Assembly (NCBI GenBank): GCA_937922785.1
Contig: CALAJQ010000020.1
Location: 62,001 to 126,000, forward strand
Direction: 5' to 3'
Length of the DNA stretch: 64,000 bases
From: an uncultured Acidimicrobiales bacterium
GTDB lineage: Bacteria; Actinomycetota; Acidimicrobiia; Acidimicrobiales; SZUA-35
The number at the start of each line of letters is the position of its first letter. Position 1 is the stretch's first letter. The notes below the pieces were generated by a model that searched no databases, was not told the DNA's origin, and saw only the letters and a program-made list of their open reading frames with translations. The position numbers and the translations under genes are program-made. Shown here piece by piece: positions 17,616 through 48,879 of this stretch.

Positions 17616-19724
17616 ATGGCACTAGAAGATGACTTCCTTTGGAAACTAGATTTCCAACAACACTGGCCCGCCCAAAGCGTCCTGGTCGTTCCGTACCGAA
17701 CCACTGAAGAGGCCCAGACGACGCTCAGCTTGGACGCGATGCGCGAACAGATCTTTGACAAGTTCTGGGGATTTGCTGAAGGAAGGCCGGCTAGTCCTGC
17801 CGTGGGCTCGATGGCTCACTATTTCCGAACCGTGAGTAACAACGCGATGGCTTTCGACGACCCAGAGGGCACCTATGTGACCCGCAAGGATTACTACGTT
17901 TCGAATCAACGGGCTGACTATGACCTTGACCCTGGCGATGATCTCAGCAGCGCAATGAGAACAGTGCTGCTTCGGTCGCTAGAGGACGAGGTCGACTTCA
18001 ACGCATACACAGAAGGCAGCGGGGGAGTTGAACGAGGTGATCTTGTTGTTGTCATGGTCAATCGCAGCGGCCGAGGTCGGGGTGGCACGGTTAGAGCATC
18101 GATTCCAGGTGAGCTAACCCTCGACGGCGTCAAAGTGCGAGTGCACGTGGCCGCGTTCGGCAACTCGGCCGATATGGATGTTGGCGCTCATGAACTCATT
18201 CACGTTCTTGTCACGCAGAATACTGACTTGTATGGACCTGGCGGCTGGAACACGCCGGCATCTCTCATGGGAAACAGCCCGGGCCGCGGCGTGGTACATC
18301 CCGATGGAGTTCACAAGGTGCGGCTTGGCTGGCAAAAGCCACGGGCTATCGATATCGCTTCCGCTGCCAGCCAAACGCAAACTCTTCTAGCCCAGACGGT
18401 TCCGGAACGAACACGCGGAGAGGGCGACCCAATTGTTCTGTTTGACTCGCGCCGGTCGGATCGGGAGTTCTTCTTGCTTGAATACCGAACTCCCGACGCC
18501 AGAAGCGCATCCGCGGGCGACTATGAAAGCAACTTGGATTCTTCAGGCCTTGCAATATGGCATGCGGAGTCCGATGGCAATGGCTACGTGAGGCGTCACG
18601 GCTACATCAAGAATGTTGCCGCTCCAGGTAGGGAACCCTCAGGCAACGACCTGCTTCAGGGAGGCGGGTGGCTCGAATTCCGTCCGGCCTTGCAAGGCAA
18701 TGACGGGGTGTTCTATTGCATCAAGACCGACGGTTCGATGGTTTGGTACCGAAATACCGGGTGGGAATCGGGTACCGCATCATGGGCTAATGGTGGACGT
18801 GAGAAGAGGATTGCGTCTGGTCGTGGTTGGGAGGATTTCTACCAAGTGCTGGCCGGAAATAGTGGCGTTCTCTACTGCGTCAAGACGGATGGTTCGATGG
18901 TTTGGTACCGGAACACTGGCTGGGAGACGGGTGACGCAACCTGGGCTAATGGTGGACGTGAGAAGAGGATTGCGTCTGGTCGTGGTTGGGAGGATTTCCA
19001 TCAGCTGATTGCCAGCGACCAAGGCGTGTTCTATTGCATCAAGACGGATGGTTCGATGGTTTGGTATCGGAACATTGGCTGGGAGACGGGCGAAGCAACC
19101 TGGGCTAATGGTGGACGTGAGAAGAAGATTGCGTCCGGTCGTGGCTGGGAAGACTTCCATCAAGTCGTAGCAGGTAACAACGGAGTGCTCTATTGCATCA
19201 AGACGGATGGTTCGATGGTTTGGTACCGGAACACTGGCTGGGAGACGGGTGAAGCAACCTGGGCTAACCGAGGACGCGAGATGGATATCGGTCAGCAGAG
19301 TGGTTGGAACGACTTCCATCAAGTTATCGCTGGCGACAATGGGGTCTTCTATTGCATCACCAAGGACGGCGCCATGGTTTGGTTCCGTCACATCGATTGG
19401 GAGACTGGCGGGCCGAGGTGGGCCAATGGTGGTCGGCCTGTCACGCTGATCAGCGGAAACCGCAAGATGCTGATCAACTGGGGCTACGACGCCCAGCTTC
19501 AGACTCGGCCGGTTCCAGGCGAAACTCGACGCCATGGACCACCTATCAACCTGGTCGCCTCGCCCAAGGGGGAGTACGGATACCAACACGGCTTCTGGAC
19601 GTCAAAGAACCGCAACATCCGGCTTCGCTGGCCCGGCGGAGACCGGCTAGACGCGACCATCCGTGTGGCCCAAGCCGCCGAAGACGCTGACTCCATCGAG
19701 GTGACAATCACGACGGCTAACTAA
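17616..19724 (+). CDS. M6-like metalloprotease fused to tachylectin-2-like beta-propeller
   Basis: The 702-residue protein has a zinc-peptidase motif HELIH at 192-196 followed by a downstream GGWNTPASLMG segment, similar to M6 (immune-inhibitor-A-like) proteases. Residues ~345-610 hold five tandem 53-residue units (G-V-F/L-Y-C-I-K-T-D-G-S-M-V-W-Y-R-N core) matching tachylectin-2-type sugar-binding propeller blades. A short C-terminal beta domain ends the protein. The start is ATG 17616 after TGAGGAGAT. No signal peptide is visible. It probably cleaves glycoprotein or binds GlcNAc-type glycans, based on family knowledge. It is the last gene of the protease island and is closed by a hairpin. 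Confidence 0.88.
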   Translation: MALEDDFLWKLDFQQHWPAQSVLVVPYRTTEEAQTTLSLDAMREQIFDKFWGFAEGRPASPAVGSMAHYFRTVSNNAMAFDDPEGTYVTRKDYYVSNQRADYDLDPGDDLSSAMRTVLLRSLEDEVDFNAYTEGSGGVERGDLVVVMVNRSGRGRGGTVRASIPGELTLDGVKVRVHVAAFGNSADMDVGAHELIHVLVTQNTDLYGPGGWNTPASLMGNSPGRGVVHPDGVHKVRLGWQKPRAIDIASAASQTQTLLAQTVPERTRGEGDPIVLFDSRRSDREFFLLEYRTPDARSASAGDYESNLDSSGLAIWHAESDGNGYVRRHGYIKNVAAPGREPSGNDLLQGGGWLEFRPALQGNDGVFYCIKTDGSMVWYRNTGWESGTASWANGGREKRIASGRGWEDFYQVLAGNSGVLYCVKTDGSMVWYRNTGWETGDATWANGGREKRIASGRGWEDFHQLIASDQGVFYCIKTDGSMVWYRNIGWETGEATWANGGREKKIASGRGWEDFHQVVAGNNGVLYCIKTDGSMVWYRNTGWETGEATWANRGREMDIGQQSGWNDFHQVIAGDNGVFYCITKDGAMVWFRHIDWETGGPRWANGGRPVTLISGNRKMLINWGYDAQLQTRPVPGETRRHGPPINLVASPKGEYGYQHGFWTSKNRNIRLRWPGGDRLDATIRVAQAAEDADSIEVTITTAN
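18708..19440 (+). repeat. Tandem 159-bp coding repeat (five lectin blades)
   Basis: Equivalent codons recur at 18708, 18867, 19026, 19185 and 19344, an exact 159-bp period. The middle units are almost identical at DNA level, while the outer ones diverge. This suggests recent gene-conversion or slippage-driven homogenisation. Confidence 0.93.
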
Positions 19725-23064: not shown

Positions 23065-24261
23065 CTAACTATTTGCGGCGTCGGCCGCCGCCTTCTTCTT
23101 GGCCATGATCTTGAGGGAGAAGGTTTCGCCTCGGCCCTTCTCGCTCCAGGGGCAGACCCCAATACAGATTCCGCAGCCGTGGTTCTCGACGAAGTAGGGG
23201 ATACATGTGTCGAAGTCGACATACCAGCGCTCGCGGCCACGGACCATCTGTTTGGTGTCGAAGATCGCGTTCGGGGGACAGTTGGTGGTGCACGCCTGAC
23301 AACGGGCGCAGAACTCGTCGATACCGATGTCTTCTGGGGCATCAAGAACAAGTGGAAGGTTCGTGGCCACTGCTCCAAGCCGATACATCGATCCCAGGTC
23401 TTTGGAAATCATCGACCCGTGTTTGCCGAGCTGACCGAGGCCGGCCTCAATCGCGGCCGGAATTTGGAGGAAGCCATGTATCGCCGCTTGTGCGTCCCAT
23501 CCCATGTCGCGGATGTGTTGGGCAACTTGGGCCGATATCAAATCGGTGCCTCGATACTCAGCTTGGATGGTTAGTGCTGAGCGCTCACTTGGGGCGTAAA
23601 GCGCCGCTTCGCGATCCATCTCGACACCAAAGCTGATGATGTAGGGATGATCGAGTGGAAGCTCTTCAGTCAGCATGTCATCGGTTAGAGGAGCGATACC
23701 CACCATGCAGGCGCCCAGTTCTTTCGTAAGAGCCTTGATCTGCTCGGTCATCGCGGCGGGATCTTCTACCGCGATTTTCTCCGGTGCTTTCTCACCGGTG
23801 AAGCGACGCGTGTTCCATTGTCGTTTGAGTAGTGCAATCCACTCGCCCTTGGTCCGGATCCCTTGGAAGAGAAACTCGAGCTTTCCCATGGGGTGGCCGA
23901 ACTGCCAAGTGTGGAAGATCGGGCTGGCCGGGCGGTGCTCGGTCTCACCAAGCCCGTTGATCACGTTGCCCGATACGGGTGGCTTCTGTACCTCGAACGC
24001 ATAATTCGTCGACGGATATTCGTCTAGCTTCATGAAGTGAGACTTGCGGCTTTGGCCCGGTTTGGGTGTGAAGTCGGCTGCAGGCTGGCCAGGTTCGGGC
24101 GCAGGGATGGCTGGCCCGAAATCGTCCAGAACGATCCTGCGTCCGGCCTGTTGGGCAGCGTTGAACTCCTTACGTAGTTCGCGCCCCGATGTCCAGTGCC
24201 GTATCGACGTCTTCAGAAGTTGCCGAGCGCCCTTTATGTCTTGTTGGATTCGCTCACGCAT
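23065..24261 (-). CDS. Reductive-dehalogenase-like corrinoid/Fe-S protein
   Basis: The 398-residue protein has a C-terminal ferredoxin part with CARCQACTTNCP (~318-329) and CGICIGVCPW (~363-372), two [4Fe-4S] motifs. The middle region (PYIISFGVEMDREA ... EYRGTDLISAQVAQHIRDMGWDAQA ... IEAGLGQLGKHGSMISKDLGS) matches the cobalamin-binding core of RdhA and related epoxyqueuosine-reductase-like proteins. It lacks a Tat signal, so it is cytoplasmic. ATG 24261 has GTAGGA upstream. It is third in an operon with two putative selenoproteins, which may deliver electrons or protect it from peroxides. Substrate unknown; dehalogenation is an inference. Confidence 0.85.
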   Translation of the reverse strand: MRERIQQDIKGARQLLKTSIRHWTSGRELRKEFNAAQQAGRRIVLDDFGPAIPAPEPGQPAADFTPKPGQSRKSHFMKLDEYPSTNYAFEVQKPPVSGNVINGLGETEHRPASPIFHTWQFGHPMGKLEFLFQGIRTKGEWIALLKRQWNTRRFTGEKAPEKIAVEDPAAMTEQIKALTKELGACMVGIAPLTDDMLTEELPLDHPYIISFGVEMDREAALYAPSERSALTIQAEYRGTDLISAQVAQHIRDMGWDAQAAIHGFLQIPAAIEAGLGQLGKHGSMISKDLGSMYRLGAVATNLPLVLDAPEDIGIDEFCARCQACTTNCPPNAIFDTKQMVRGRERWYVDFDTCIPYFVENHGCGICIGVCPWSEKGRGETFSLKIMAKKKAAADAANS

Positions 24262-24296
24262 CGTTCCTACCCCAGTTTCTGATTGGCCTATTCCGT

Positions 24297-24869
24297 TTAA
24301 CCTTTGGTCCACCCAACGCTGGATGGGTGCCCCTTACGCTGTTCTTCTGCTTCGCCTGTGTGTTTGCCTACGTTCCACCCCACGTCGCTGAGGTTCTCGC
24401 TAGCCCAGTCGACCGACTCCTGATCGGTCACGGTGGCGACGGTGTCGTTCCATCGGTTCAGCCATCCGGCAAGGGAATTGACTGCGAGGATCTCGATGAT
24501 CTGCTCGTTGGAGTAGTGCTTGCGGAGCTCCTCGAAATGTTCGGGCCCGGATTCGTTTGGAGACTGAGAAGCGGCAAGTACCAGATCTAGAGCGGCTCGC
24601 TCTGGGTCGGTAAACAGATCCGAAGTTCCGTACTGCCAGATGGCCTGAATCCGCTCGGTCTCAACTCCCATTGCGTTCAAACTGAACGCGCCGTGAGATT
24701 GTCAATGCGTACTGCTGTTGGAATGGCTTGCCATCGTAAACAGCATCGACTTGAACTCTCGAGAGATCGTTCGCTCGCTGTTGACGAGGTTCACCAAGTT
24801 GTTGACCATGGCTCGTAGCTCGGGCCAATTGTCGAGCTCAAAGTCTTGACGGTTCTGGTACTCGCTCAT
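24297..24869 (-). CDS. Putative selenoprotein, CMD/AhpD-like (SxxU), UGA at residue 56
   Basis: The frame runs from ATG 24869, with AGGAG 6 nt upstream, to the stop at 24297. It has one in-frame TGA at 24702-24704 and gives 190 residues if read through. The residues around the TGA (NSSTH-U-QSHGAF) align with the N-x-C-x-Y-C-Q-x-H-T redox signature of carboxymuconolactone decarboxylase/alkylhydroperoxidase-D-like proteins. The TGA replaces the second Cys and Ser replaces the first. The downstream part (MGVETERIQAIWQY ... ERAALDLVLAASQ ... QIIEILAVNSLAGWLNRW) is typical CMD sequence. A SECIS-like hairpin follows the TGA. Selenocysteine is inferred; selA/B/C/D are not in the window. Confidence 0.78.
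24665..24697 (-). promoter_or_regulatory. Putative bacterial SECIS after UGA 24704
   Basis: In the mRNA a perfect 7-bp stem GCGUUCA/UGAACGC (24689-24683 with 24679-24673) closes a 3-nt loop GUU that begins with G. The loop starts 20 nt after the UGA. A lower stem CUC/GAG (24697-24695 with 24667-24665) extends it. This satisfies the general bSECIS description: loop 16-37 nt from UGA and an early loop G. Confidence 0.7.
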
Positions 24870-24878
24870 TGTTTGCTC

Positions 24879-25865
24879 CTAGCCCCGCAGATGGTCGGGG
24901 ATGGTTACTTGTAATTCGTCGGCGATGTCGTAGTAGCGCTTGTTGACTGGGACACCCACAGCATCAACGACCCGGTTGGTGCCTTCAAAACCAGCGCAGA
25001 CTGCGGCGGCCCGCGTGACCGCTCCCGGCCCCGCTGCGTCGTGCAGGGCCTGGCGTGCGATCGGTAGTTCATCGAAGTCGAGTAGCACGATGGCGTCGAC
25101 AAAGGCCACAAGCTCGTTACCTAGAGGAACCAGCGGGTCGAGGGTCTCGTTGGTGACGGCCAAGATGTTGACTGGCAGGTTGTTGGCGTTGGAGTTCTCA
25201 CGGAGCATCCAGGCATGGCCAAACAGTCAAAAGAAGCACTCGTTGAGGAAGGACGTGCGAGAGGCGACCAGCTCCATCTGGGCTCGGGTCAGTTCTCTAC
25301 CGGGGTCGATGTCGTACTTGTGCACGAACTCATCGGTTAGGTACCACTCTTTCGACATCGCGTCTTTGGCAGCCTTCTCGTTGGGAAGAGCGTTTAAAGC
25401 GGTTGGAGCCAGAGCGATTCCAACCGTCGGGACCCAAGCGTTGGACTTCACCGCTCGTTCATCATTGGCGGGAGTTGGTTCGCCGGGGACCGGCGCAGGA
25501 AGACCGTCTAAAGGAGCGCCCAAACCGACCCGGTAGGAGTCAATCGAACTGATCTGGGCCACAACCGCGACAAGCTCAACAAAGGCAAGAACATCGAGAC
25601 CCTCGGCCTCCCACGCAGCCACGTGTTCAGAGCGACTGTTCATCGCCTCGACTGCAACCCGTCGGACCGTGTCAGCCACTATCTGCGCGAGATCGGGACC
25701 AGTCGGTTCGAGGCCGCGGGCAAACCGGGCCTGGTGAGCAAGGGTGACGCGTTCGGATCCGGTGAAGAACGAACCTGCGGTGGCGATGTTTCTCAGCGCG
25801 TCCGCAATAGCGGAATCGGCCGCTGCATCGGGTGCGGCGAGTGTTGGCTGGCTTGCCGTATACAT
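24879..25865 (-). CDS. Putative selenoprotein, two-domain CMD/AhpD-like (CxxU), UGA at residue 213
   Basis: ATG 25865 has AGAGG 6 nt upstream. The frame continues to the stop at 24879 across a single in-frame TGA (25227-25229), giving 328 residues. The TGA lies in ECFF-U-LFGHAWMLRE, matching the CxxC...H active site of AhpD-like peroxidases with the second Cys replaced. Sequence on both sides of the TGA is conserved-looking: RELTRAQMELVASRTSFLN before, and GNELVAFVDAIVLLDFDELP after. The N-terminal ~190 residues form a related but Cys-free helical domain. It is first in the operon, 9 bp before the second putative selenoprotein, under a 27-bp palindromic operator. A CxxU redox centre in peroxide or disulfide reduction is inferred. 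Confidence 0.8.
25190..25211 (-). promoter_or_regulatory. Putative bacterial SECIS after UGA 25229
   Basis: In the mRNA UGGA (25211-25208) pairs with UCCA (25193-25190), and GCUC with GAG/C around small bulges. They close the 3-nt loop CGU (25202-25200), whose second base is G. The loop starts 24 nt after the UGA. The fold is less perfect than the neighbouring one but has the same layout. Confidence 0.55.
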
Positions 25866-25938: not shown

Positions 25939-26354
25939 ATGAAAAATTCGCTTCTTCGGGACTTTGGAAGGAATTGGCCGAGCGTCACCCCAACGCTCTG
26001 GTTGTCTTGTCTCATCGCGGAAATGCCGAAACATGGTGGGAAAGTGCTGACGCGACCGTGTGGCAAGTCATGCGCGATATCGAATCCGGAAGTCGTCAAG
26101 AACACGTGGATGGCCTTCACCAGTTATTGCGCGAACTAACCGGATTCAGTGAGGATCTCGACGACGCCGTTGACGCTCGCAGGGCCTACAACCAGCACTA
26201 CGAGAAAGTGGTGGCGACCGTCCCGAAGCAGCGGCTTCTCATTTGGCAGCCCGGCGACGGTTGGGAGCCACTGTGTGAACGGCTTGGATTGCCTGTTCCC
26301 GATGAGGCTCCGGCGCACGCCAACACTCGCACGGAGTTCCGCAAGCGGTTCTAA
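25939..26354 (+). pseudogene. Truncated, frameshifted sulfotransferase remnant
   Basis: From about 25960 the third frame encodes SGLWKELAERHPNALVVLSHRGNAETWWESADA ... RLLIWQPGDGWEPLCERLGLPVPDEAPAHANT. This is the C-terminal two-thirds of a Sulfotransferase_4-type P-loop sulfotransferase. The ~75 N-terminal residues with the PAPS-binding GxxRTGT loop are absent. No start codon fits the frame; the nearest ATG (25939) is one base out of frame, next to a run of five A. The remnant overlaps the convergent alkylsulfatase stop by 4 bp. Decay or partial transfer is likely. Confidence 0.8.
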
Positions 26355-27667
26355 GTGGCAGTGACCTCGGCCCGAAGTTCCTGAGCGCAAGTGTGGAGGT
26401 AGTTGCGCCCGGTTGCCGTTATGAGGTTGTAGCCAAGCTCGTCGAGGGCGTTGGCCTTCAGAAGCTTGGCCTCATCAGCCCGGTGTTCGAGGGCAATGCA
26501 CATGTCGCACAACTCCGCCGCCCATTGGGTCTGGCCATCGGAAAGTGCAGCCTCGGCTCGGGACAAGAGCACATCCGCGCCGCCCGCGAGATCGGCGATC
26601 TGGGCTGCTCGTTCAGCTGGGTGCAGCGGGTTCATGTGGCTGGGGTTGCCGTCGAACCAGCCAAGAATGCCGTTGAAGATTGATCGCACACTCCAGCTGA
26701 TGTTGCCGTAGTACTCACCAAGAATCGGGTTGTCGGCGAGTTCTGACGGCAAGGTGATCTCGTGCGCCATCTCATCCGGGGTCTTGCCAGCATTCATCCC
26801 CGCGATCGTCTCGTTGTAGATATGCCACATGGCTCGGCTGTAGGTGTCGATTGCTTGGTCAACTTCACCCGCTCCAGAAAACGGGGTGGTATGGCCGAGC
26901 ACCAGATGGTCGGCCTTGAGCTCACGGATCCGGTCGACCGCCTCGCACCAGTCGCGAACATCGCGGTACTGCGTACCCCGGATGGCGTACAGGTTCGGCC
27001 ACGAGCGATACATGTTGTCTCCACCGAACGCGACCCGGTCATCAGGGAACCATGTGAGGATCTGATCTTTCGTCTCGCCCGGATTAGGGGTGACTACGAG
27101 GTTTACGCCACCAAGGGAGATGGTCGTTTGCTTAGCAAACGTCTTTGACGGAAGAGTTTTGGGATCCGGTCCGCCGCTTGGTCCGGCCGCCAGGGCCCCA
27201 GTCTTCGGGTAGCGAACCGGAGCGATGCCGTTGTTGATGCGTTTCTCGGGTGGCAGAAGAAAACCAGCCTGCCGCTTGCCCCTGGTGCCAGCGATCGTGG
27301 CTCCGTTCCGCGAGAACCTTTGGGCTTCGTCGCCGAAACTCGCATGGCCCCAGATCTCTACGTCGGGATTCTCCTCAACAAATGCGGTCGCTCCGCCCGT
27401 GTGGTCAGGGTGACCGTGGGTGTACACCAGACCGAGAATTGGAAGATTGGTGTGAGCACGCAAGTCGGCAATCGCTTCGGACGATTCCGCCGGAGTCGAT
27501 CCCGAATCTACCGCAACCACACCGGTGTCACCGATTACAAAGGAGAACGTCGATACGCCGTAGCCAACGGCCACGTGGACTCGTTCGGTTAGAACCATCC
27601 ATTGACGTTCGAAAAGGTGATTTACCGAACGGAGTTTTTCGGATGCGGGAGTGTCCATGCCGGGCAT
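26351..27667 (-). CDS. Alkylsulfatase-type metallo-beta-lactamase hydrolase (short form)
   Basis: The 438-residue protein has the metal motif THGHPDHTGG (~84-93), FGGDN (~215) and VLGHTTP (~252). It then has the SdsA/BDS1 dimerisation region (ALSDGQTQWAAELCDMCIALEHRADEAKLLKANALDELGY). It lacks the C-terminal SCP2-like domain found in classic alkylsulfatases. Family knowledge suggests hydrolysis of alkyl or aryl sulfate esters, but carboxyl or phosphate esters are possible. The ATG 27667 follows TAGATT by 7 nt (leaderless), and the -10 box lies beside the CTAGTC operator. It may also be read from the upstream VOC-TetR genes. Confidence 0.87.
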   Translation of the reverse strand: MPGMDTPASEKLRSVNHLFERQWMVLTERVHVAVGYGVSTFSFVIGDTGVVAVDSGSTPAESSEAIADLRAHTNLPILGLVYTHGHPDHTGGATAFVEENPDVEIWGHASFGDEAQRFSRNGATIAGTRGKRQAGFLLPPEKRINNGIAPVRYPKTGALAAGPSGGPDPKTLPSKTFAKQTTISLGGVNLVVTPNPGETKDQILTWFPDDRVAFGGDNMYRSWPNLYAIRGTQYRDVRDWCEAVDRIRELKADHLVLGHTTPFSGAGEVDQAIDTYSRAMWHIYNETIAGMNAGKTPDEMAHEITLPSELADNPILGEYYGNISWSVRSIFNGILGWFDGNPSHMNPLHPAERAAQIADLAGGADVLLSRAEAALSDGQTQWAAELCDMCIALEHRADEAKLLKANALDELGYNLITATGRNYLHTCAQELRAEVTAT

Positions 27668-27677
27668 GGATCCGAAT

Positions 27678-27692
27678 CTAGTCGATGACTAG
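27678..27692. promoter_or_regulatory. TetR-type operator before the alkylsulfatase gene
   Basis: CTAGTC-GAT-GACTAG is a palindrome, and on the minus strand it is extended by the same flank (GACTAGAnTCG) as the operator at 25891-25917. It overlaps the TetR stop codon and lies next to the TAGATT -10 box of the leaderless gene starting at 27667. Confidence 0.78.
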
Positions 27693-28885
27693 GTGGGATG
27701 CGTGGTGCGAACGTCGTCGTCGACGAGTCGGCACGAGATAGCCGCAATGCGCAGTCGAATCCCAGCAACACCGCCGTTCAACGACTCGAGGCTGTACTCG
27801 ATGATGTCCCTATAGATCGCCCATCCAAGCTCGAGAGCGTGGACGGCAGCTACTTGGGCGTGAACCGATGTACAAGTCATTGGTCGGCCGGTTCGCTCGG
27901 CCACAACCTCAACCATTTTCAGCACAACCGGAGCTCGACCGTAGGCTTCATGAACCCAGTCCTCAGTTGCGGCTATGTGGGCCAGCGTTCGCCACATCGG
28001 ATGGCGCGTCGTTGTACGAACCGGAACTGGCACGGGCGAAGTGCCGTCTTCCATCGCTTCGAGTAGCGGGGCAGATCCGAATCGAAGCGTTTGAGCGATT
28101 AGATGTTCCTTCGACTGGAAATAGTGATGCACTTGGCCGTGGTTAACTCCGGCGAGCGCGGCAATTTCTTTTGCGGTCACCTGCGAGGGAGGTCGAACGG
28201 CCAGCAGCGTATAGGCCGCATTCATAAGACTTTGTCGGACCTCTTCTCGGCCCCGCGGCGCTCCTTCGCTTATTGCAGGACGCATCGGGGCGATATCGCT
28301 CTCGGTGACCTGCTCTCCTACCGGGATGTTGTCATCAAGCAAACGAAGCGAACGTTGAGCGACCTGTTTTCGAATAGCCGGGATGTCGGGCTCAAACTCG
28401 CCGAGCGCAGTCTCGATGATGTCGCGAAGAATCCACCAGCCCCGTTGCATAGCCATGACGGCTGCGACGTCGGCCATTACTACTGGGTCGGTGGGTGTCG
28501 AGCCGGTGTCGGCGGCTCGGCGTCGCACGAGCGTGTCCACTATCGGGGACGGGTCGAAAGGTGGCTGGCGCCAAACGCCAGAAGACGCGAGGTAGGCGAG
28601 TGTTCGCCATGCCGGTGACCGGATCTCAGTCTCGATAGGGAGCGGGAAGCGAGCGCCATCGGCCAAACGGTCCTGGTGATAGGGGGAATCCGCGTCCTGA
28701 ATGGTGGCCGCAACCAATTCATCCTTCGAACCGAAGTAGTGATGGATTTGGCCGTGGTTGACTCCGGCTGCATCGGCGATCTGCTTGCTGGTCACCTCGG
28801 TCGGAGGGGCGTCGGATAGCAGGTTGGTAGCGGCAAGCATGAGCTTTGCTCGCACGGCGTCTCGGCCCCGACCCGTTGGCTCCAT
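27689..28885 (-). CDS. Double-headed TetR regulator (tandem TetR fusion)
   Basis: The 398-residue protein consists of two complete TetR units. Residues ~8-52 (LMLAATNLLSDAPP ... VTSKQIADAAGVNHGQIHHYFGSKDELVAATI) and ~218-265 (LMNAAYTLLAVRPPSQVTAKEIAALAGVNHGQVHHYFQSKEHLIAQTL) are two very similar helix-turn-helix domains. Each is followed by its own ligand-binding half. An ordinary TetR is ~200 residues and dimerises, so this is a covalent pseudo-dimer. It sits 1 nt downstream of the VOC gene and immediately upstream of the alkylsulfatase, and is the best candidate to bind the CTAGTC palindromes at 25891 and 27678. Confidence 0.9.
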   Translation of the reverse strand: MEPTGRGRDAVRAKLMLAATNLLSDAPPTEVTSKQIADAAGVNHGQIHHYFGSKDELVAATIQDADSPYHQDRLADGARFPLPIETEIRSPAWRTLAYLASSGVWRQPPFDPSPIVDTLVRRRAADTGSTPTDPVVMADVAAVMAMQRGWWILRDIIETALGEFEPDIPAIRKQVAQRSLRLLDDNIPVGEQVTESDIAPMRPAISEGAPRGREEVRQSLMNAAYTLLAVRPPSQVTAKEIAALAGVNHGQVHHYFQSKEHLIAQTLRFGSAPLLEAMEDGTSPVPVPVRTTTRHPMWRTLAHIAATEDWVHEAYGRAPVVLKMVEVVAERTGRPMTCTSVHAQVAAVHALELGWAIYRDIIEYSLESLNGGVAGIRLRIAAISCRLVDDDVRTTHPT

Positions 28886-38959: not shown

Positions 38960-40546
38960 TTATTTCTGGAACCACAGATAGGCGAACCAGTGGGTGTCGG
39001 GTGGGCCGGCGTAGGGTTCGAGCTCGTAGCGGCATGGCTGTTCCATTAGGCGTGGGTCATTTTGGTCTTCAAGCACGGACAGCAAGCGAGCTTCCATCCG
39101 GGCCCGAACCTCTTCAAACGCGGGATCATCGGCCAGATTGGTGAGGTAGTCGGGATCGGTGTTGAGGTCATACAGCTCTTCTCGTGGTCGCTTGCCGACG
39201 GCAAGGTCGTACAGCGGTTCGACGTCTTGGTCTTCCCGGTTGAGGATCATCCAAGCCTTGGTTGGGCCGGCGTCCCAATCCATGATTGTCCGCAGCGGGT
39301 TCTTGGCTAGTTGGTCCCAGGTGGGCTTGTTCTCCGCAGGTGTGTCAGGCCCAAGATCGATCGGGTCTCCAAGCGGCCAGCGGTCGGGTTCGAAGTTGAT
39401 GATGTATATGAAGTCCTTCTCGCGAAGTGAGCGCTGCGGGTAGGGGAGGAACCCAGCCCGGGCGTGGGCCACGTGGCGTTCGCGTCCGGTAACTACGTAG
39501 TCTCGCTCGGGCTCAATCTGACCACTCGCCGAACTTTGTAGCAACGGCACAAGACTGGTCGCCGACATAGATTCCGGCGGTTCGATTCCACCGACCTCAC
39601 AAAGCGTGGGGCCAAAGTCCATCAGGTTCACAAAGTCTTCGATCACGCGTCCGGGCTCGACGACGCCTGGCCAGCGCACGGCTAATGCAACCTCACAACC
39701 AATGTCATACAGGTTGTTCTTCGAGCGGGGAATGCCCGGAATCCCGTGATCACCACTAACCACGATGATCGTGTTTTCGTACTCTCCGGCCTTCTTCAGT
39801 TCTTCGACGAGAATGCCTAGGCCGTGGTCGAAGGCCAGCACCTCGCCCAAATAATCGCCGACGTCTTCACGAACATCGTGGACGTCAGGCAAGAAGCCTG
39901 GCATCTTGCCTTGTAGGTCATCGGGGTCGATGTTCCAAAGTGCTTTGCCTGAACCGCGCTCCCACGACCGGTGAGTGTTGGCCGGCCCCCACCAATAACA
40001 GAACGGCCGATCCTTGCGCCGAGCCAACAGGAACGAACGAACGTTTTCACGGGTCTCGGCGTACAAGAGTTGCTTGGCCCCCTCGATGCCGAACTTTTCT
40101 CCGAACGACGTGACGTAATGGGAGAACTGGTTGAAGTCGAGTCCGGCCGGGTTGTAAGAGGTTCGAAACCCGCCCATAGGGGAGTTGCGGGTCTGACCGG
40201 GGCTCCACACCTTGTAGGTGTGGCCGATTTCGTAGCCGCCACGTTCTTCAAGCTCTAGCGGGAACGTTGGGATCTCTTCATCCCATTCTGATCCCATCAA
40301 GATTGAGCCAAGGCCGGTCTGCCAGAAGTATTGACCCGCCAGAATGGAGCTACGGCAAGGCGTACATGTCGGAGCAGGAACCAGCGCGTTCAGGAAAAGG
40401 GCACCCTCGGCAGCGATGGCGTCGAAGCTGGGAGTCTCGATTAGGTCGTTCCATGTGCTCGCCCCTGGAGCGTCGCGATACGCGCTGGCGTAGCGGCCCC
40501 AGTCGTCGGCGAATGCAAACACAATGTTCGGTCGGTCTAGCTGCAC
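38960..40546 (-). CDS. Type I sulfatase (arylsulfatase family)
   Basis: The 528-residue protein has an N-terminal metal Asp pair (NIVFAFADDWG). The formylglycine motif Cys61-T-P-C-R is within PTCTPCRSSILAG, and the rest carries GDHGIPG and other alkaline-phosphatase-fold motifs (~270). It needs a formylglycine-generating enzyme for Cys61; none is in the window. I chose GTG 40546 with GGAG 5 nt upstream over a TTG at 40579. No signal peptide is visible, so it should act on cytoplasmic sulfate esters. It fits the two alkylsulfatases nearby. Confidence 0.9.
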   Translation of the reverse strand: MQLDRPNIVFAFADDWGRYASAYRDAPGASTWNDLIETPSFDAIAAEGALFLNALVPAPTCTPCRSSILAGQYFWQTGLGSILMGSEWDEEIPTFPLELEERGGYEIGHTYKVWSPGQTRNSPMGGFRTSYNPAGLDFNQFSHYVTSFGEKFGIEGAKQLLYAETRENVRSFLLARRKDRPFCYWWGPANTHRSWERGSGKALWNIDPDDLQGKMPGFLPDVHDVREDVGDYLGEVLAFDHGLGILVEELKKAGEYENTIIVVSGDHGIPGIPRSKNNLYDIGCEVALAVRWPGVVEPGRVIEDFVNLMDFGPTLCEVGGIEPPESMSATSLVPLLQSSASGQIEPERDYVVTGRERHVAHARAGFLPYPQRSLREKDFIYIINFEPDRWPLGDPIDLGPDTPAENKPTWDQLAKNPLRTIMDWDAGPTKAWMILNREDQDVEPLYDLAVGKRPREELYDLNTDPDYLTNLADDPAFEEVRARMEARLLSVLEDQNDPRLMEQPCRYELEPYAGPPDTHWFAYLWFQK

Positions 40547-45585: not shown

Positions 45586-47682
45586 ATGAAACTGTTCTCA
45601 CATAAGAAGCGCCCTGTCCACCTCGGCCCTTACCCACTAGAACGACTTCCACGTCTGCCTGACGCTGATGAGCCGCCTGTGGCTAGGAGTGGTCGGCGGC
45701 CTACCGAAGAACGATCGGCCGGACCTCTTGCAGCAATCGATGCCTACAAGCTCTACATCGACTTGTATGACGGCCAGCGTGACGGAGACGTCCATGAACT
45801 GGCCCCCATCCCTGAGTCTTTGTCAGAGCGCGCCCAGCATCTAAAAAGCTCCCTGTACTTCCTCGATGCCGACATGGTCGGATGTGGCATAGCCCCAGCC
45901 GATGCGTGGACCACTGGTGAGCAGCTTGACCACAACCATGCTGTTGTCATTCTGATCGAACACTCACGAATGGTTGGAGTCGACCAACCTGGTGACAACT
46001 GGATTGACGGCACCCGCCAGGTAAATGCTGATCTTCGGGCCGCCGAGCTTGCCATCATCACTGCTGGCTATATCCGGCGTCTGGGTTTTGGGGCGAAGGC
46101 TCACACTCCCTCTTCTACTGACGTGGATATCGAGTTCTTAGCTTTGCAATGCGGCCTCATCGAGTCAGTTAGAGGACATTTGCAGGCGCCGTATATCTCA
46201 GGAGGGTTCGCACTTTCGGTAGTAACCACTAGTCTCCCGATCGCTCACGATGCTCCGCTTGCTAGACGCGGTCTGAGCGACTCGCTGCGCAGCACTAAAT
46301 CGCCAGCATGGATATTCGGTCGTGGCGGCACCAGGGCTGGGCTCGGTCGACTTAATGGTGATCACCGGCCGCTGCACATGGGCCGATACCCAATGGAGAA
46401 GATCAAACGGGTGCCTGAGGCCACGACGCTGATCATCCCAGAGGAAGTGGAGCGGGTCCCTGTCCGCGCCGGGGGTTTCCCCCGAGCCGCCCACGGCGAC
46501 ATGGGTCCGAAGTTTCAAAAGGACGTGAAGATATTCGCCTACAAGACCCCGCAAGCTCAGACCTACATCGAGCAAATTGGGGCGATGGTTCCACATCAAG
46601 ACGGCGAAGTCGCCGACGAGATTGTGAGCGGTACCAACGACCCGGCCCAAAACGCTGATGCCCTGAAGGCATTCGCCTATCACCTGGGCGGTGACATGGT
46701 TGGCGTGTGTGAGGTACCCACCTACGCCTGGTACTCCCACAATGGCAAAGGTGAGGAGATCACGCCTCGCCACAAATATGGCGTGGTCATCCTGCTTGAT
46801 CAGGGTTACGAAACAATGGAAGGCGCCAGCGGCGACGACTGGATCTCTGGTGCGCAGTCCATGCGGGCTTACATGCGCGGCGCCCAGATCGCCGGAATCA
46901 TGGCCGAGCACCTTCGCGGGCTCGGATGGAGCGCCCGGAGCCATACCAATAGAGATTCCGAGGTACTGCATATTCCACTGGTGTTAGAAGCCGGGCTGGG
47001 CGAGATGAGTCGCATCGGTGAGCTAGTACTAAACCCATTCGTGGGTCCACGTTTTAAGTCAGTTGTTCTCACCACAGACATGCCTCTTACTCCTGATCTG
47101 AAGATCGACTTTGGACTACAAGACTTTTGCAACAAGTGCACAAAGTGCGCTCGTGAGTGCCCATGTGGTGCCATCCCGTTTGGTGAAAAGATCATGTTCA
47201 ATGGCTACGAGACGTGGAAGCCTGATGTTGAGAAGTGCACAAAGTACCGTCTCGGCAACCTCAAAGGTTCAGCCTGCGGGCGCTGCATGAAGACATGCCC
47301 ATACAACACTGAAGGTGTGCTTTCCGAGCGGGCAATTCTGTGGGCGGCAATAAAGCTGCCTTTCACCCGCAAGTTCATTGCCCACCTTGATGACAAGGTC
47401 GGCAACGGCTCGATCAACACACTCAAGAAGTGGTGGTGGGACCTTGAGTTTGTGGAAGGACGAACAGTTCTACCAACCAAAGGCACCAACGCTCGTGGCC
47501 TAGATTTGGATGGCGGCCGGATTGCCAACAAGCAAAAGATCGCCCTCTACACGCCCGACGTTCTTCCAGCCGGAGACAATCAGGGTGTACCGGTGAAGCT
47601 TGTACGCAAAGAAGCGATCGTGCGTGGAGAGAACGCTGAAAGCCCGGCCGCAGCGAGGCGAAGAATCGGTTCTAAACCGTAA
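45586..47682 (+). CDS. rdhA: Catabolic reductive dehalogenase (NpRdhA type)
   Basis: The 698-residue protein has no Tat signal, so it is cytoplasmic. The N-terminal ~220 residues are a degenerate copy of the cobalamin-binding fold: HLGPYPLERLPR parallels HLGPY-like HMGRYPMEKIKR at ~265. The active copy covers ~265-505 (YHLGGDMVGVCEVPTYAWY ... YMRGAQIAGIMAEHLRGLGWSARSH). Then come two [4Fe-4S] motifs, CNKCTKCARECP (~515) and CGRCMKTCPYN (~564). NpRdhA and BhbA, with this plan, remove halogens from 3,5-dihalo-4-hydroxybenzoates or phenols using cob(I)alamin. pobA lies directly beyond it, supporting a halogenated 4-hydroxybenzoate substrate. Confidence 0.88.
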   Translation: MKLFSHKKRPVHLGPYPLERLPRLPDADEPPVARSGRRPTEERSAGPLAAIDAYKLYIDLYDGQRDGDVHELAPIPESLSERAQHLKSSLYFLDADMVGCGIAPADAWTTGEQLDHNHAVVILIEHSRMVGVDQPGDNWIDGTRQVNADLRAAELAIITAGYIRRLGFGAKAHTPSSTDVDIEFLALQCGLIESVRGHLQAPYISGGFALSVVTTSLPIAHDAPLARRGLSDSLRSTKSPAWIFGRGGTRAGLGRLNGDHRPLHMGRYPMEKIKRVPEATTLIIPEEVERVPVRAGGFPRAAHGDMGPKFQKDVKIFAYKTPQAQTYIEQIGAMVPHQDGEVADEIVSGTNDPAQNADALKAFAYHLGGDMVGVCEVPTYAWYSHNGKGEEITPRHKYGVVILLDQGYETMEGASGDDWISGAQSMRAYMRGAQIAGIMAEHLRGLGWSARSHTNRDSEVLHIPLVLEAGLGEMSRIGELVLNPFVGPRFKSVVLTTDMPLTPDLKIDFGLQDFCNKCTKCARECPCGAIPFGEKIMFNGYETWKPDVEKCTKYRLGNLKGSACGRCMKTCPYNTEGVLSERAILWAAIKLPFTRKFIAHLDDKVGNGSINTLKKWWWDLEFVEGRTVLPTKGTNARGLDLDGGRIANKQKIALYTPDVLPAGDNQGVPVKLVRKEAIVRGENAESPAAARRRIGSKP

Positions 47683-47712: not shown

Positions 47713-48879
47713 CTAGTAGTCGAGGCCGACATATTGCTCAGCAACTGATTTCCGTGCCGATTCTGACCTTGTTAGATATGCCAGGTCTTCCTCTCGCATT
47801 CTCTGTTCGAATGCGGTCTCTTCGGGGAACCTGTGCAGCAGCACGGTCATCCACCAAGAGAATCGAACTGATGACCACACTCTCCGCAGTGCGGTTTCAG
47901 AATAGGAATCGAGCTTGGCTGAGTTCCCAGCGTAGTGCTCTACCAGCGCTTCGGTTAAGTAGTGGACATCAGCAATGGCAAGGTTCAAGCCCTTGGCTCC
48001 TGTTGGCGGCACAATGTGTGCTGCGTCGCCAGCGAGGAACATTTTCCCGTATTGCATCGGCTCGATTACTTGGCTTCGAAGTGGAGCGATCGATTTTTCA
48101 ATTGATGGTCCTGTCACGACGTGCTCACCAATAGACGGTGGCAGTCGCTCGATCAGCTCGGTCCAGAACCGGTCGTCTGACCATTGATCGACTGTGTCTT
48201 CTAACGGGCACTGAACGTAATAGCGGCTGAGCATCGGGTTGCGCTCAGAGCAGAGAGCGAAGCCGTTCTTGTGGTTGGCATAGACAAGCTCGGGCAGCGG
48301 GGGAGTTTCCGACAGTATTCCTAACCAGCCAAACGGGTAGGCCCGCTCGAACTCAGACCTGCGTTTGAACGGGATGGCCCCGCGGCTTACGCCGTGTTGC
48401 CCATCACACCCTGCGATGTAGTCACAATCGACCCGTTGTGTCTCGCCGTTGGTGGTGAAAGTGACGTATGGATTGTCTGTCGTCACGTCGTGGATTTCCA
48501 CGTCGCTAGATTCGAAGATGATGTTCAGGTTCTCTCGCTCGGCCGCAGCGTAGAGATCCTCCTGAATCTTGGTTTGGCCATAAGCCATCATCGGTTTTCC
48601 GGCGAGACGTTGGAACTCGATGTCGAGTATCTCACTGCCGCGCCACCCGATCTTGACCCGATCATGGCGATGGCCTTCTTTGTGTAGCCGCTCGCCAAGG
48701 CCAACAGATTCCAAGAGCTCGACGCTGGTCCATTCCAGAACGCCGGCCCGAATTCGATCCAGGACGTAGGACTTTGATTGGCGTTCGATGACGATGGATT
48801 CGATGCCTCGTTGATGCAGGATTAGTGAGAGAAGTGAACCAGCTGGTCCGGCCCCGATGATGGCTACCTGTGTCTTCAT
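47713..48879 (-). CDS. pobA: 4-Hydroxybenzoate 3-monooxygenase
   Basis: The 388-residue flavoprotein has GAGPAG (~9-14), RIRAGVLEWTSVELLESVG (~43-61) and the DG-type motif YIAGCDGQHGVSR (~155). It also has YPFGWLGIL and FLAGDAAHIVPPTGAKGLNLAIAD (~285-308). These match PobA from end to end. It uses NAD(P)H and O2 to convert 4-hydroxybenzoate to protocatechuate. It is the last gene of a galD-ligI-gntR-pobA operon and starts 1 nt after the GntR stop. It converges on the dehalogenase gene. Confidence 0.96.
   Translation of the reverse strand: MKTQVAIIGAGPAGSLLSLILHQRGIESIVIERQSKSYVLDRIRAGVLEWTSVELLESVGLGERLHKEGHRHDRVKIGWRGSEILDIEFQRLAGKPMMAYGQTKIQEDLYAAAERENLNIIFESSDVEIHDVTTDNPYVTFTTNGETQRVDCDYIAGCDGQHGVSRGAIPFKRRSEFERAYPFGWLGILSETPPLPELVYANHKNGFALCSERNPMLSRYYVQCPLEDTVDQWSDDRFWTELIERLPPSIGEHVVTGPSIEKSIAPLRSQVIEPMQYGKMFLAGDAAHIVPPTGAKGLNLAIADVHYLTEALVEHYAGNSAKLDSYSETALRRVWSSVRFSWWMTVLLHRFPEETAFEQRMREEDLAYLTRSESARKSVAEQYVGLDY

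What the first reader, a model, noticed from the sequence alone, without database searches (positions are those of the whole stretch)
24297..25865. Two adjacent AhpD/CMD-like genes with in-frame TGA at the redox cysteine: putative selenoprotein pair
Both consecutive genes stay open across one TGA each (25227-25229 and 24702-24704), with family-like sequence on both sides. In both, the TGA replaces the second Cys of the peroxidase-type active site (C-F-F-U...H and S-T-H-U-Q-S-H). Both TGAs are followed by a hairpin whose loop starts 20 or 24 nt downstream with a G in the first two positions, as expected of bacterial SECIS elements. A sequencing error or decay would not be expected to hit the same functional residue twice. 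AhpD-like selenoproteins have been described from marine metagenomes. Two in tandem, one with the unusual SxxU, in an operon with a dehalogenase-like corrinoid protein, looks new.
Basis: partly seen in the sequence, partly recalled or inferred. Interest (0 to 1): 0.93.

Follow-up and report, generated by a model that had tools for sequence, protein, structure and literature searches.

The report
Selenoprotein gene pair beside dehalogenase gene
Two neighbouring bacterial genes appear to read a stop codon as the rare amino acid selenocysteine at their reactive site; one belongs to a known selenoprotein family, and the other is a recent selenium version of a protein family that includes a bromine-removing enzyme, kept together with a dehalogenase-like gene, which hints at selenium-based removal of halogens by bacteria.

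Summary
Both genes (24879-25865 and 24297-24869, minus strand) run through one TGA each, at the second redox position of an AhpD/CMD-type protein. The genome has tRNA-Sec, SelA, SelB and SelD. Gene 1 is a member of a known selenoprotein family (NCBIfam NF041238, 213 bits, cut-off 175); all 38 rows aligned over its Sec column have a stop there. Gene 2 is the new part: four orthologues from three genomes have SxxU (TGA), while the other 34 of 38 loci examined have CxxC. The TGA copies share a hairpin with gene 1's loop type; seven Cys copies lack it. The window's gene 2 protein has no cysteine. Its closest solved relative is the debrominase Bmp8. Genes 1-3 stay together despite rearrangement; gene 3 is reductive-dehalogenase-like and keeps the catalytic Tyr/Arg. 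A PF00884 sulfatase is often nearby. Gene 2 is most likely a Sec-dependent reductive dehalogenase-like enzyme; this function is inferred. An antioxidant role guarding the dehalogenase is the main rival.

The parts
24879..25865 (-). Gene 1: AhpD-related selenoprotein, 328 aa, CFF-Sec; two AhpD-like halves, Sec in the second
   Evidence: (NF041238 212.8 vs 175)
25227..25229 (-). Sec codon TGA of gene 1 (residue 213)
25193..25207 (-). Predicted bSECIS apical hairpin of gene 1 (+20 to +34 after TGA); imperfect in the window, conserved in the family
24297..24869 (-). Gene 2: Bmp8-like CMD-fold selenoprotein, 190 aa, SxxU, no cysteine; AGGAG before its ATG, 9 nt after gene 1
24702..24704 (-). Sec codon TGA of gene 2 (residue 56)
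24673..24689 (-). Predicted bSECIS hairpin of gene 2, GCGTTC-AGTTT-GAACGC, +13 to +29
23065..24261 (-). Gene 3: reductive-dehalogenase-like protein, likely start Met18 of the ORF 23065-24312; Tyr253 and Arg311 (ORF numbering), Fe-S cysteine motifs
26351..27667 (-). Neighbour: metallo-beta-lactamase / alkyl-sulfatase-like protein; membership in the unit not shown
27689..28885 (-). Neighbour: tandem TetR-type regulator; pieces of it also lie upstream of gene 1 in L022 and L023

Best explanation
Genes 1 and 2 are true selenoprotein genes, decoded by the genome's own SelA/SelB/SelD/tRNA-Sec at TGA codons followed by SECIS hairpins with an NGTNN loop (supported by comparison; no protein was seen). 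They form a conserved unit with gene 3, a reductive-dehalogenase-like protein that probably carries corrinoid and Fe-S clusters (inferred from residues). Most likely the unit removes halogen from an aromatic compound, in several relatives perhaps after a sulfatase has freed it from a sulfate ester. In gene 2 the Sec56 selenolate would attack the halogen (as thiols are proposed to do in Bmp8 and selenium in deiodinase), giving a selenenyl halide. Because the first Cys is now Ser and the window protein has no Cys, the enzyme would have to be reset by an outside thiol or by gene 1, whose Cys-x-x-Sec pair is a natural candidate. Gene 3 would act on the same or a related substrate. All steps after decoding are inferred. 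Selenoprotein status: about 0.95. Dehalogenation role: about 0.4-0.5.
For: Sec machinery. Sec/Cys pairing at the gene-2 column, 4 TGA and 34 Cys of 38 loci (some loci overlap). Stop at the gene-1 column in 38 of 38 rows (some rows are the same gene). SECIS. Purifying selection after the TGA. Sec gene 2 is one clade inside CxxC proteins. Bmp8 nearest in PDB by profile, 7.9e-39 against 3.6e-17 for the next protein, and joint top by structure, Z 19.6. Bmp8 is said to dehalogenate by oxidation of its cysteines to a disulfide with HBr (a proposal, PMC5577590, passage). Cluster of genes 1-3 in rearranged orders; gene 1 and gene 2 orthologues (70% or more identical) occur in the same 3 of 39 family genomes, gene 3 orthologues in those 3 plus one. 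Tyr/Arg and seven Fe-S cysteines of gene 3 kept in 17 of 17 homologues looked at. Orthologous sulfatase beside gene 3 in four loci. A full-length NpRdhA homologue and a 4-hydroxybenzoate monooxygenase lie elsewhere in the window.
Against: Bmp8 sits on a long branch with unsure placement, and an uncharacterised CMD protein (2gmy) ties it in structure, Z 19.5. The CMD fold hosts peroxidases. Only 2 of 27 stretches around more distant gene-2 relatives hold a dehalogenase-like gene, both in one genus. Gene 3 scores below the TIGR02486 cut-off, 114 against 160, and dehalogenase-like matches are common in the family, 23 of 39 genomes at 1e-20. The window has no sulfatase beside the cluster (its orthologue is on another contig); L025 shows none among the ORFs scanned; sulfatases are numerous, 11 matches in this genome. 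In G032 gene 2 lies about 20 kb from genes 1 and 3.
Confidence: 0.48

Rival explanations
1. Genes 1 and 2 are antioxidant selenoenzymes (AhpD-type hydroperoxide reductases) that guard an oxygen-sensitive corrinoid/Fe-S protein (gene 3) in an aerobic cell.
For: CMD/AhpD fold for both; TIGR01926 'peroxidase-related' matches for both, though below its cut-off (36 and 35 bits against 81.8); NF041238 is named alkylhydroperoxidase-related; Sec is typical of peroxidases (recalled).
Against: Bmp8 is nearer to gene 2 than the AhpD proteins; gene 2 has lost the first Cys of the redox pair; no AhpC-type peroxiredoxin is among the neighbours scanned with Pfam, though no AhpC search of the genome was made.
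Confidence: 0.3
2. Genes 1 and 2 are electron-delivery or reactivation partners of gene 3 and do not touch the halogenated substrate themselves.
For: Conserved clustering and shared occurrence with gene 3; CxxU in gene 1 is a redox pair.
Against: The Cys-free mono-Sec gene 2 of the window cannot form an internal bond to a Cys and so is a poor electron shuttle (inference).
Confidence: 0.17
3. The gene 2 TGA is a real stop and the gene is decaying, or only the 127-aa downstream ORF is made.
For: Mechanical ORF calling shows an ORF that begins after the TGA.
Against: Same TGA in four orthologues of three genomes, dN/dS far below 1 after it, SECIS loop seen only in TGA copies, complete Sec machinery.
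Confidence: 0.02

Closest known systems
NF041238 AhpD_rel_CFYUT, alkylhydroperoxidase-related (seleno)protein (listed in review PMC13188914 as Sargasso Sea hypothetical protein 1, CxxU)
   Same: Gene 1: score over cut-off, CFxU motif
   Different: None noticed; here it is clustered with gene 2 and gene 3
Bmp8 tetrabromopyrrole debrominase (PDB 6ohi, 6ohj)
   Same: Gene 2: fold, nearest solved sequence, His three residues after the second redox position
   Different: Second Cys is Sec and first Cys is Ser; about 27% identity in the structural alignment; activity unknown
NF053654 GroundWater_YciW, YciW-related (seleno)protein
   Same: Best NCBIfam hit of gene 2; its name implies Sec members
   Different: Gene 2 scores 44 bits against a cut-off of 310
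Iodothyronine deiodinase and bacterial deiodinase-like selenoproteins (PF00837)
   Same: Proposed chemistry: selenolate attack on an aromatic halogen
   Different: Gene 2 has an all-helical AhpD-like model and no PF00837 match
Catabolic reductive dehalogenase NpRdhA (4ras) and PceA (4uqu)
   Same: Gene 3: Tyr at the catalytic Tyr, Arg at the NpRdhA Lys488 / PceA Arg position, Fe-S cysteines
   Different: Below the TIGR02486 cut-off; shorter than NpRdhA; main match limited to residues 182-400

Membership tests
SelB-dependent bacterial selenoprotein (gene 1 and gene 2) | Genome has tRNA-Sec, SelA, SelB, SelD | tested here: met
   all four over their cut-offs. Control genomes over the cut-off: tRNA-Sec 5 of 14, SelB 2, SelA 1, SelD 2
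SelB-dependent bacterial selenoprotein (gene 2) | Homologues have Cys where TGA stands | tested here: met
   34 of 38 loci Cys, 4 TGA
SelB-dependent bacterial selenoprotein (gene 2) | SECIS hairpin after TGA, G in first two loop positions, 16-37 nt away | tested here: met
   model as given in PMC13188914 (passage)
SelB-dependent bacterial selenoprotein (gene 1) | SECIS hairpin after TGA, stem of 4 bp or more | tested here: inconclusive
   window stem has a C-A mismatch and chance-level energy; family-level loop and codon conservation strong
SelB-dependent bacterial selenoprotein | Sec present in the protein | not testable with these tools
   needs mass spectrometry or 75Se
NF041238 (gene 1) | Score over the curated cut-off | tested here: met
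   212.8 vs 175
Bmp8-like debrominase (gene 2) | AhpD-like fold, nearest to Bmp8 | tested here: met
   tied in structure with 2gmy
Bmp8-like debrominase (gene 2) | CxxC redox pair | tested here: not met
   SxxU in the TGA copies; CxxC in sister orthologues
Bmp8-like debrominase (gene 2) | Reductive dehalogenase activity | not testable with these tools
   needs an assay
NF053654 GroundWater_YciW (gene 2) | Score over the curated cut-off | tested here: not met
   43.9 vs 310
Deiodinase family PF00837 (gene 2) | Pfam match | tested here: not met
   only CMD listed at E 0.1
RdhA TIGR02486 (gene 3) | Score over the curated cut-off | tested here: not met
   114 vs 160.35
RdhA (gene 3) | Catalytic Tyr, Arg/Lys partner, Fe-S cysteines | tested here: met
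   roles of Y426/K488 in PMC7565698 passages
RdhA (gene 3) | Binds a corrinoid | not testable with these tools
   needs the purified protein

The most novel reading that the evidence does not exclude
Gene 2 is a cofactor-free, cysteine-free selenocysteine dehalogenase: a bacterial counterpart of thyroid deiodinase that arose independently on the AhpD fold from a CxxC ancestor by a C-to-S and C-to-Sec change, working in one pathway with a corrinoid reductive dehalogenase, a CxxU selenoprotein reductant and a sulfatase on halogenated aryl sulfates such as those made by algae.
Probability: 0.28. Interest if true: 0.86.

Novelty: new variant of a known kind. Interest (0 to 1): 0.64.

Why it matters
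Known selenium-dependent dehalogenation rests, as far as I recall, on the thioredoxin-fold deiodinases. A Sec member of the debrominase-like CMD family, tied to a dehalogenase-like protein, would be a second, independent way to do this chemistry. It also gives a close-up of a Cys-to-Sec gain: orthologues 73-79% identical to the window's have CxxC without the hairpin, while the window's and its nearest kin have SxxU with it. That makes the question of why an enzyme takes up Sec and drops the first Cys directly testable with natural pairs.

Tried and rejected
Pseudogene, sequencing error and a start inside gene 2: rejected. Hairpin energy of the window alone as proof: rejected, chance level. A general link between the Bmp8-like family and reductive dehalogenases: rejected, 2 of 27 stretches. 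Placing Bmp8 in the tree: unresolved, long branch. Plasmid relatives of gene 2 (9 records): weak, 26-34% identity, and the first-ranked record has almost no annotation. Rfam over the window: no match at gathering scores. PADLOC: no match for the three proteins at 0.001. The paper on Bmp8's structure (10.1021/acs.biochem.9b00318) and Haft and Tolstoy 2025 (PMC12013261) are not held; I saw neither. Ten paper searches were made; their listings show no Sec-containing Bmp8-like protein, but for most papers only title and start of abstract were seen, and most subscription papers are not in the library. Papers of which I saw passages: PMC13188914, PMC5577590, PMC12025243, PMC2398784, PMC11429811, PMC7565698. 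PMC7144113 and PMC12013277 were searched for terms without a hit.

Full report
Observation. On the minus strand, gene 1 (25865 to 24879) and gene 2 (24869 to 24297) each stay open through one TGA. Gene 1 reads CFF-U-LFGH, gene 2 reads STH-U-QSH. Gene 2 begins 9 nt after gene 1 and has an AGGAG before its ATG. Gene 3 follows; its ORF starts at 24312 but homologues and a Met fit a start at 24261.

Sec decoding. The genome (4.91 Mb, 95.7% complete by the tool) has tRNA-Sec (66.7 bits, cut-off 47; also called by ARAGORN), selB (275 bits, cut-off 242), selA (385, cut-off 268) next to selB, and selD (368, cut-off 125), the last with an in-frame TGA of its own. Of the 14 control genomes the same searches pass the cut-off in 5, 2, 1 and 2. 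tRNA-Sec lies on a separate 18.9-kb contig, so a binning error cannot be fully excluded for it alone.

Gene 1 is known. It passes the cut-off of NF041238, alkylhydroperoxidase-related (seleno)protein, which the 2026 review PMC13188914 lists as a CxxU selenoprotein (passages). In the family, 30 of 39 genomes, the window's among them, have a match at 1e-10; 49 of the 50 matches carry one TGA and the other ends before the column. All 38 rows aligned over the column have a stop there (some rows are the same gene), and all of the 20 and the 33 sequences whose codon was read have TGA. Its predicted fold (pLDDT 94.2) matches both halves of human Sestrin2 (Z 17.4, 231 residues, rmsd 3.0, chain 5dj4_D) better than single AhpD-type proteins (Z 12.9 and below). 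Sestrin-like double-domain bacterial proteins are already described (PMC11429811, passages).

Gene 2 is the new element. Its nearest orthologues stand directly beside gene 1 in L022, L023, L025, L026, L027 and L028. L022, L023, L027 and the window have SxxU with TGA; L025, L026, L028 and L061 have CTHC. L022 and L027 come from the same MAG, so the four TGA copies are from three genomes. The other loci have CxxC, down to about 26% identity. In a class-wide sample, 11 of 395 genomes had a match at 1e-20 and none but the window's had TGA at the column. In a tree of 35 rows the four Sec proteins form one group (95/95) nested inside Cys proteins, so one gain of Sec, together with loss of the first Cys, is the simplest reading. 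The window protein has no Cys; the other three Sec proteins keep only Cys132.

Selection and RNA signal. In gene 2, window against L022, L023 and L027, dN/dS is 0.065, 0.087 and 0.069 after the TGA and 0.14-0.20 before it. In gene 1, among codons 150-319 examined, the four with the strongest synonymous constraint are 221-224, in the hairpin; Arg222 is CGT in 20 of 20 against 14% in the same genes. Over 33 distinct sequences the loop is NGTNN with G and T invariant; the five stem pairs, from the loop outwards, are formed in 33, 33, 29, 30 and 27; the closing pair is C-G in 31 and T-A in 2; the window is among the four that fail at the third pair. Gene 2's hairpin has the same C-G-closed NGTNN loop (AGTTT) with a 6-7 bp stem in 4 of 4 TGA copies and in 0 of 7 Cys copies, one of which (L026) encodes the same AFSLNAMG peptide; random synonymous recoding gives it in 0.75%. 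Results against: the folding energy of each hairpin window is ordinary (36% of recodings are as low for gene 2 and 58% for gene 1), and any stem of 7 bp or more turns up in 8.8% for gene 2.

What gene 2 is like. A profile of 34 relatives finds Bmp8 in the PDB at 7.9e-39, the next protein at 3.6e-17. The model (pLDDT 90.7) is joint nearest to Bmp8 (Z 19.6, 159 residues, rmsd 2.0, 27% identity) and to an uncharacterised CMD protein (Z 19.5, 145 residues, rmsd 1.6). PDB titles Bmp8 a debrominase and holds a C82A mutant with tribromopyrrole; PMC5577590 reports the proposal that its cysteines are oxidised to a disulfide with loss of HBr (passage). I recall, without having seen the paper, that its authors compared the mechanism with thyroid deiodinase.

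Gene 3. It matches NpRdhA (1.9e-34) and PceA (9.2e-30). By the printed alignment, Tyr253 falls on NpRdhA Tyr426 and Arg311 on Lys488, the place of an Arg in PceA (counted by eye). Both, and seven Fe-S cysteines, are kept in 17 of 17 homologues. PMC7565698 names Y426 and K488 as a catalytic dyad acting as proton donor (passages). Gene 3 stays below the TIGR02486 cut-off.

The unit. Orders differ: 1-2-3 in the window, L022, L023, L027; 3-1-2 in L025; 3 divergent from 1-2 in L026, with an aminotransferase between; 1-3 in G032 with gene 2 about 20 kb off. Of 39 family genomes, orthologues (70% or more identical) of gene 1 and of gene 2 are in G000, G023 and G032, of gene 3 in these and G031, whose contig ends 3.4 kb long. 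Orthologous sulfatases, 67-81% identical to each other, lie beside gene 3 in G032, L027, G023 and G031; the window's genome has one (86% to L027's) on another contig, and the nearest PF00884 match in the window is a different one about 14 kb from gene 1, at 39587-40531. A different sulfatase lies beside gene 2 in L026; L025 shows none among the ORFs scanned; L022 and L023 are short contigs. This genome has 11 sulfatase matches in all. Stretches around more distant gene-2 relatives hold a dehalogenase-like gene in 2 of 27, so the link belongs to this orthologue group.

Organism context. At 45586-47682 (+) the window holds a full-length NpRdhA homologue (3e-197; TIGR02486 178.5 over 160.35), next to a 4-hydroxybenzoate 3-monooxygenase (576.6 over 538.7). 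NpRdhA reduces 3,5-dibromo-4-hydroxybenzoate (PMC7565698). This would fit a bacterium that degrades halogenated hydroxybenzoates.

Verdict. A real, conserved pair of selenoprotein genes; one known family, one new Sec variant. That they are selenoproteins is strongly supported by comparison though unproven at the protein level. The dehalogenation role is an inference from nearest relative, active-site anatomy and conserved neighbours.

Noticed in passing
window 45586-47682 (+) and 47713-48879 (-): Full-length NpRdhA-type catabolic reductive dehalogenase next to a convergent 4-hydroxybenzoate 3-monooxygenase, a likely halo-hydroxybenzoate degradation pair.
   Followed up: partly
G000:C16:164748-165671 (L019): selD of this genome has its own in-frame TGA, so SelD is itself a likely selenoprotein, a known situation.
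   Followed up: partly
window 25953-26339 (+): C-terminal part of a sulfotransferase (Sulfotransfer_4, profile 77-215 of 215) between gene 1 and the alkyl-sulfatase-like gene; may be a remnant.
   Followed up: no
gene 1, window 24879-25865: Predicted fold matches both halves of human Sestrin2, with the active Sec in the second half.
   Followed up: partly
G000:C10:87422-88339 (within L108): A second TGA-containing gene-1 paralogue, 37% identical, elsewhere in the genome.
   Followed up: no
L100:11776-13083, L022:949-2277, L023:863-2176: A luciferase-like monooxygenase lies upstream of gene 1 in these relatives; in the window the upstream neighbour is the alkyl-sulfatase-like gene.
   Followed up: no
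window 17616-19724 (+): 702-aa protein with a tachylectin match; not related to the finding.
   Followed up: no
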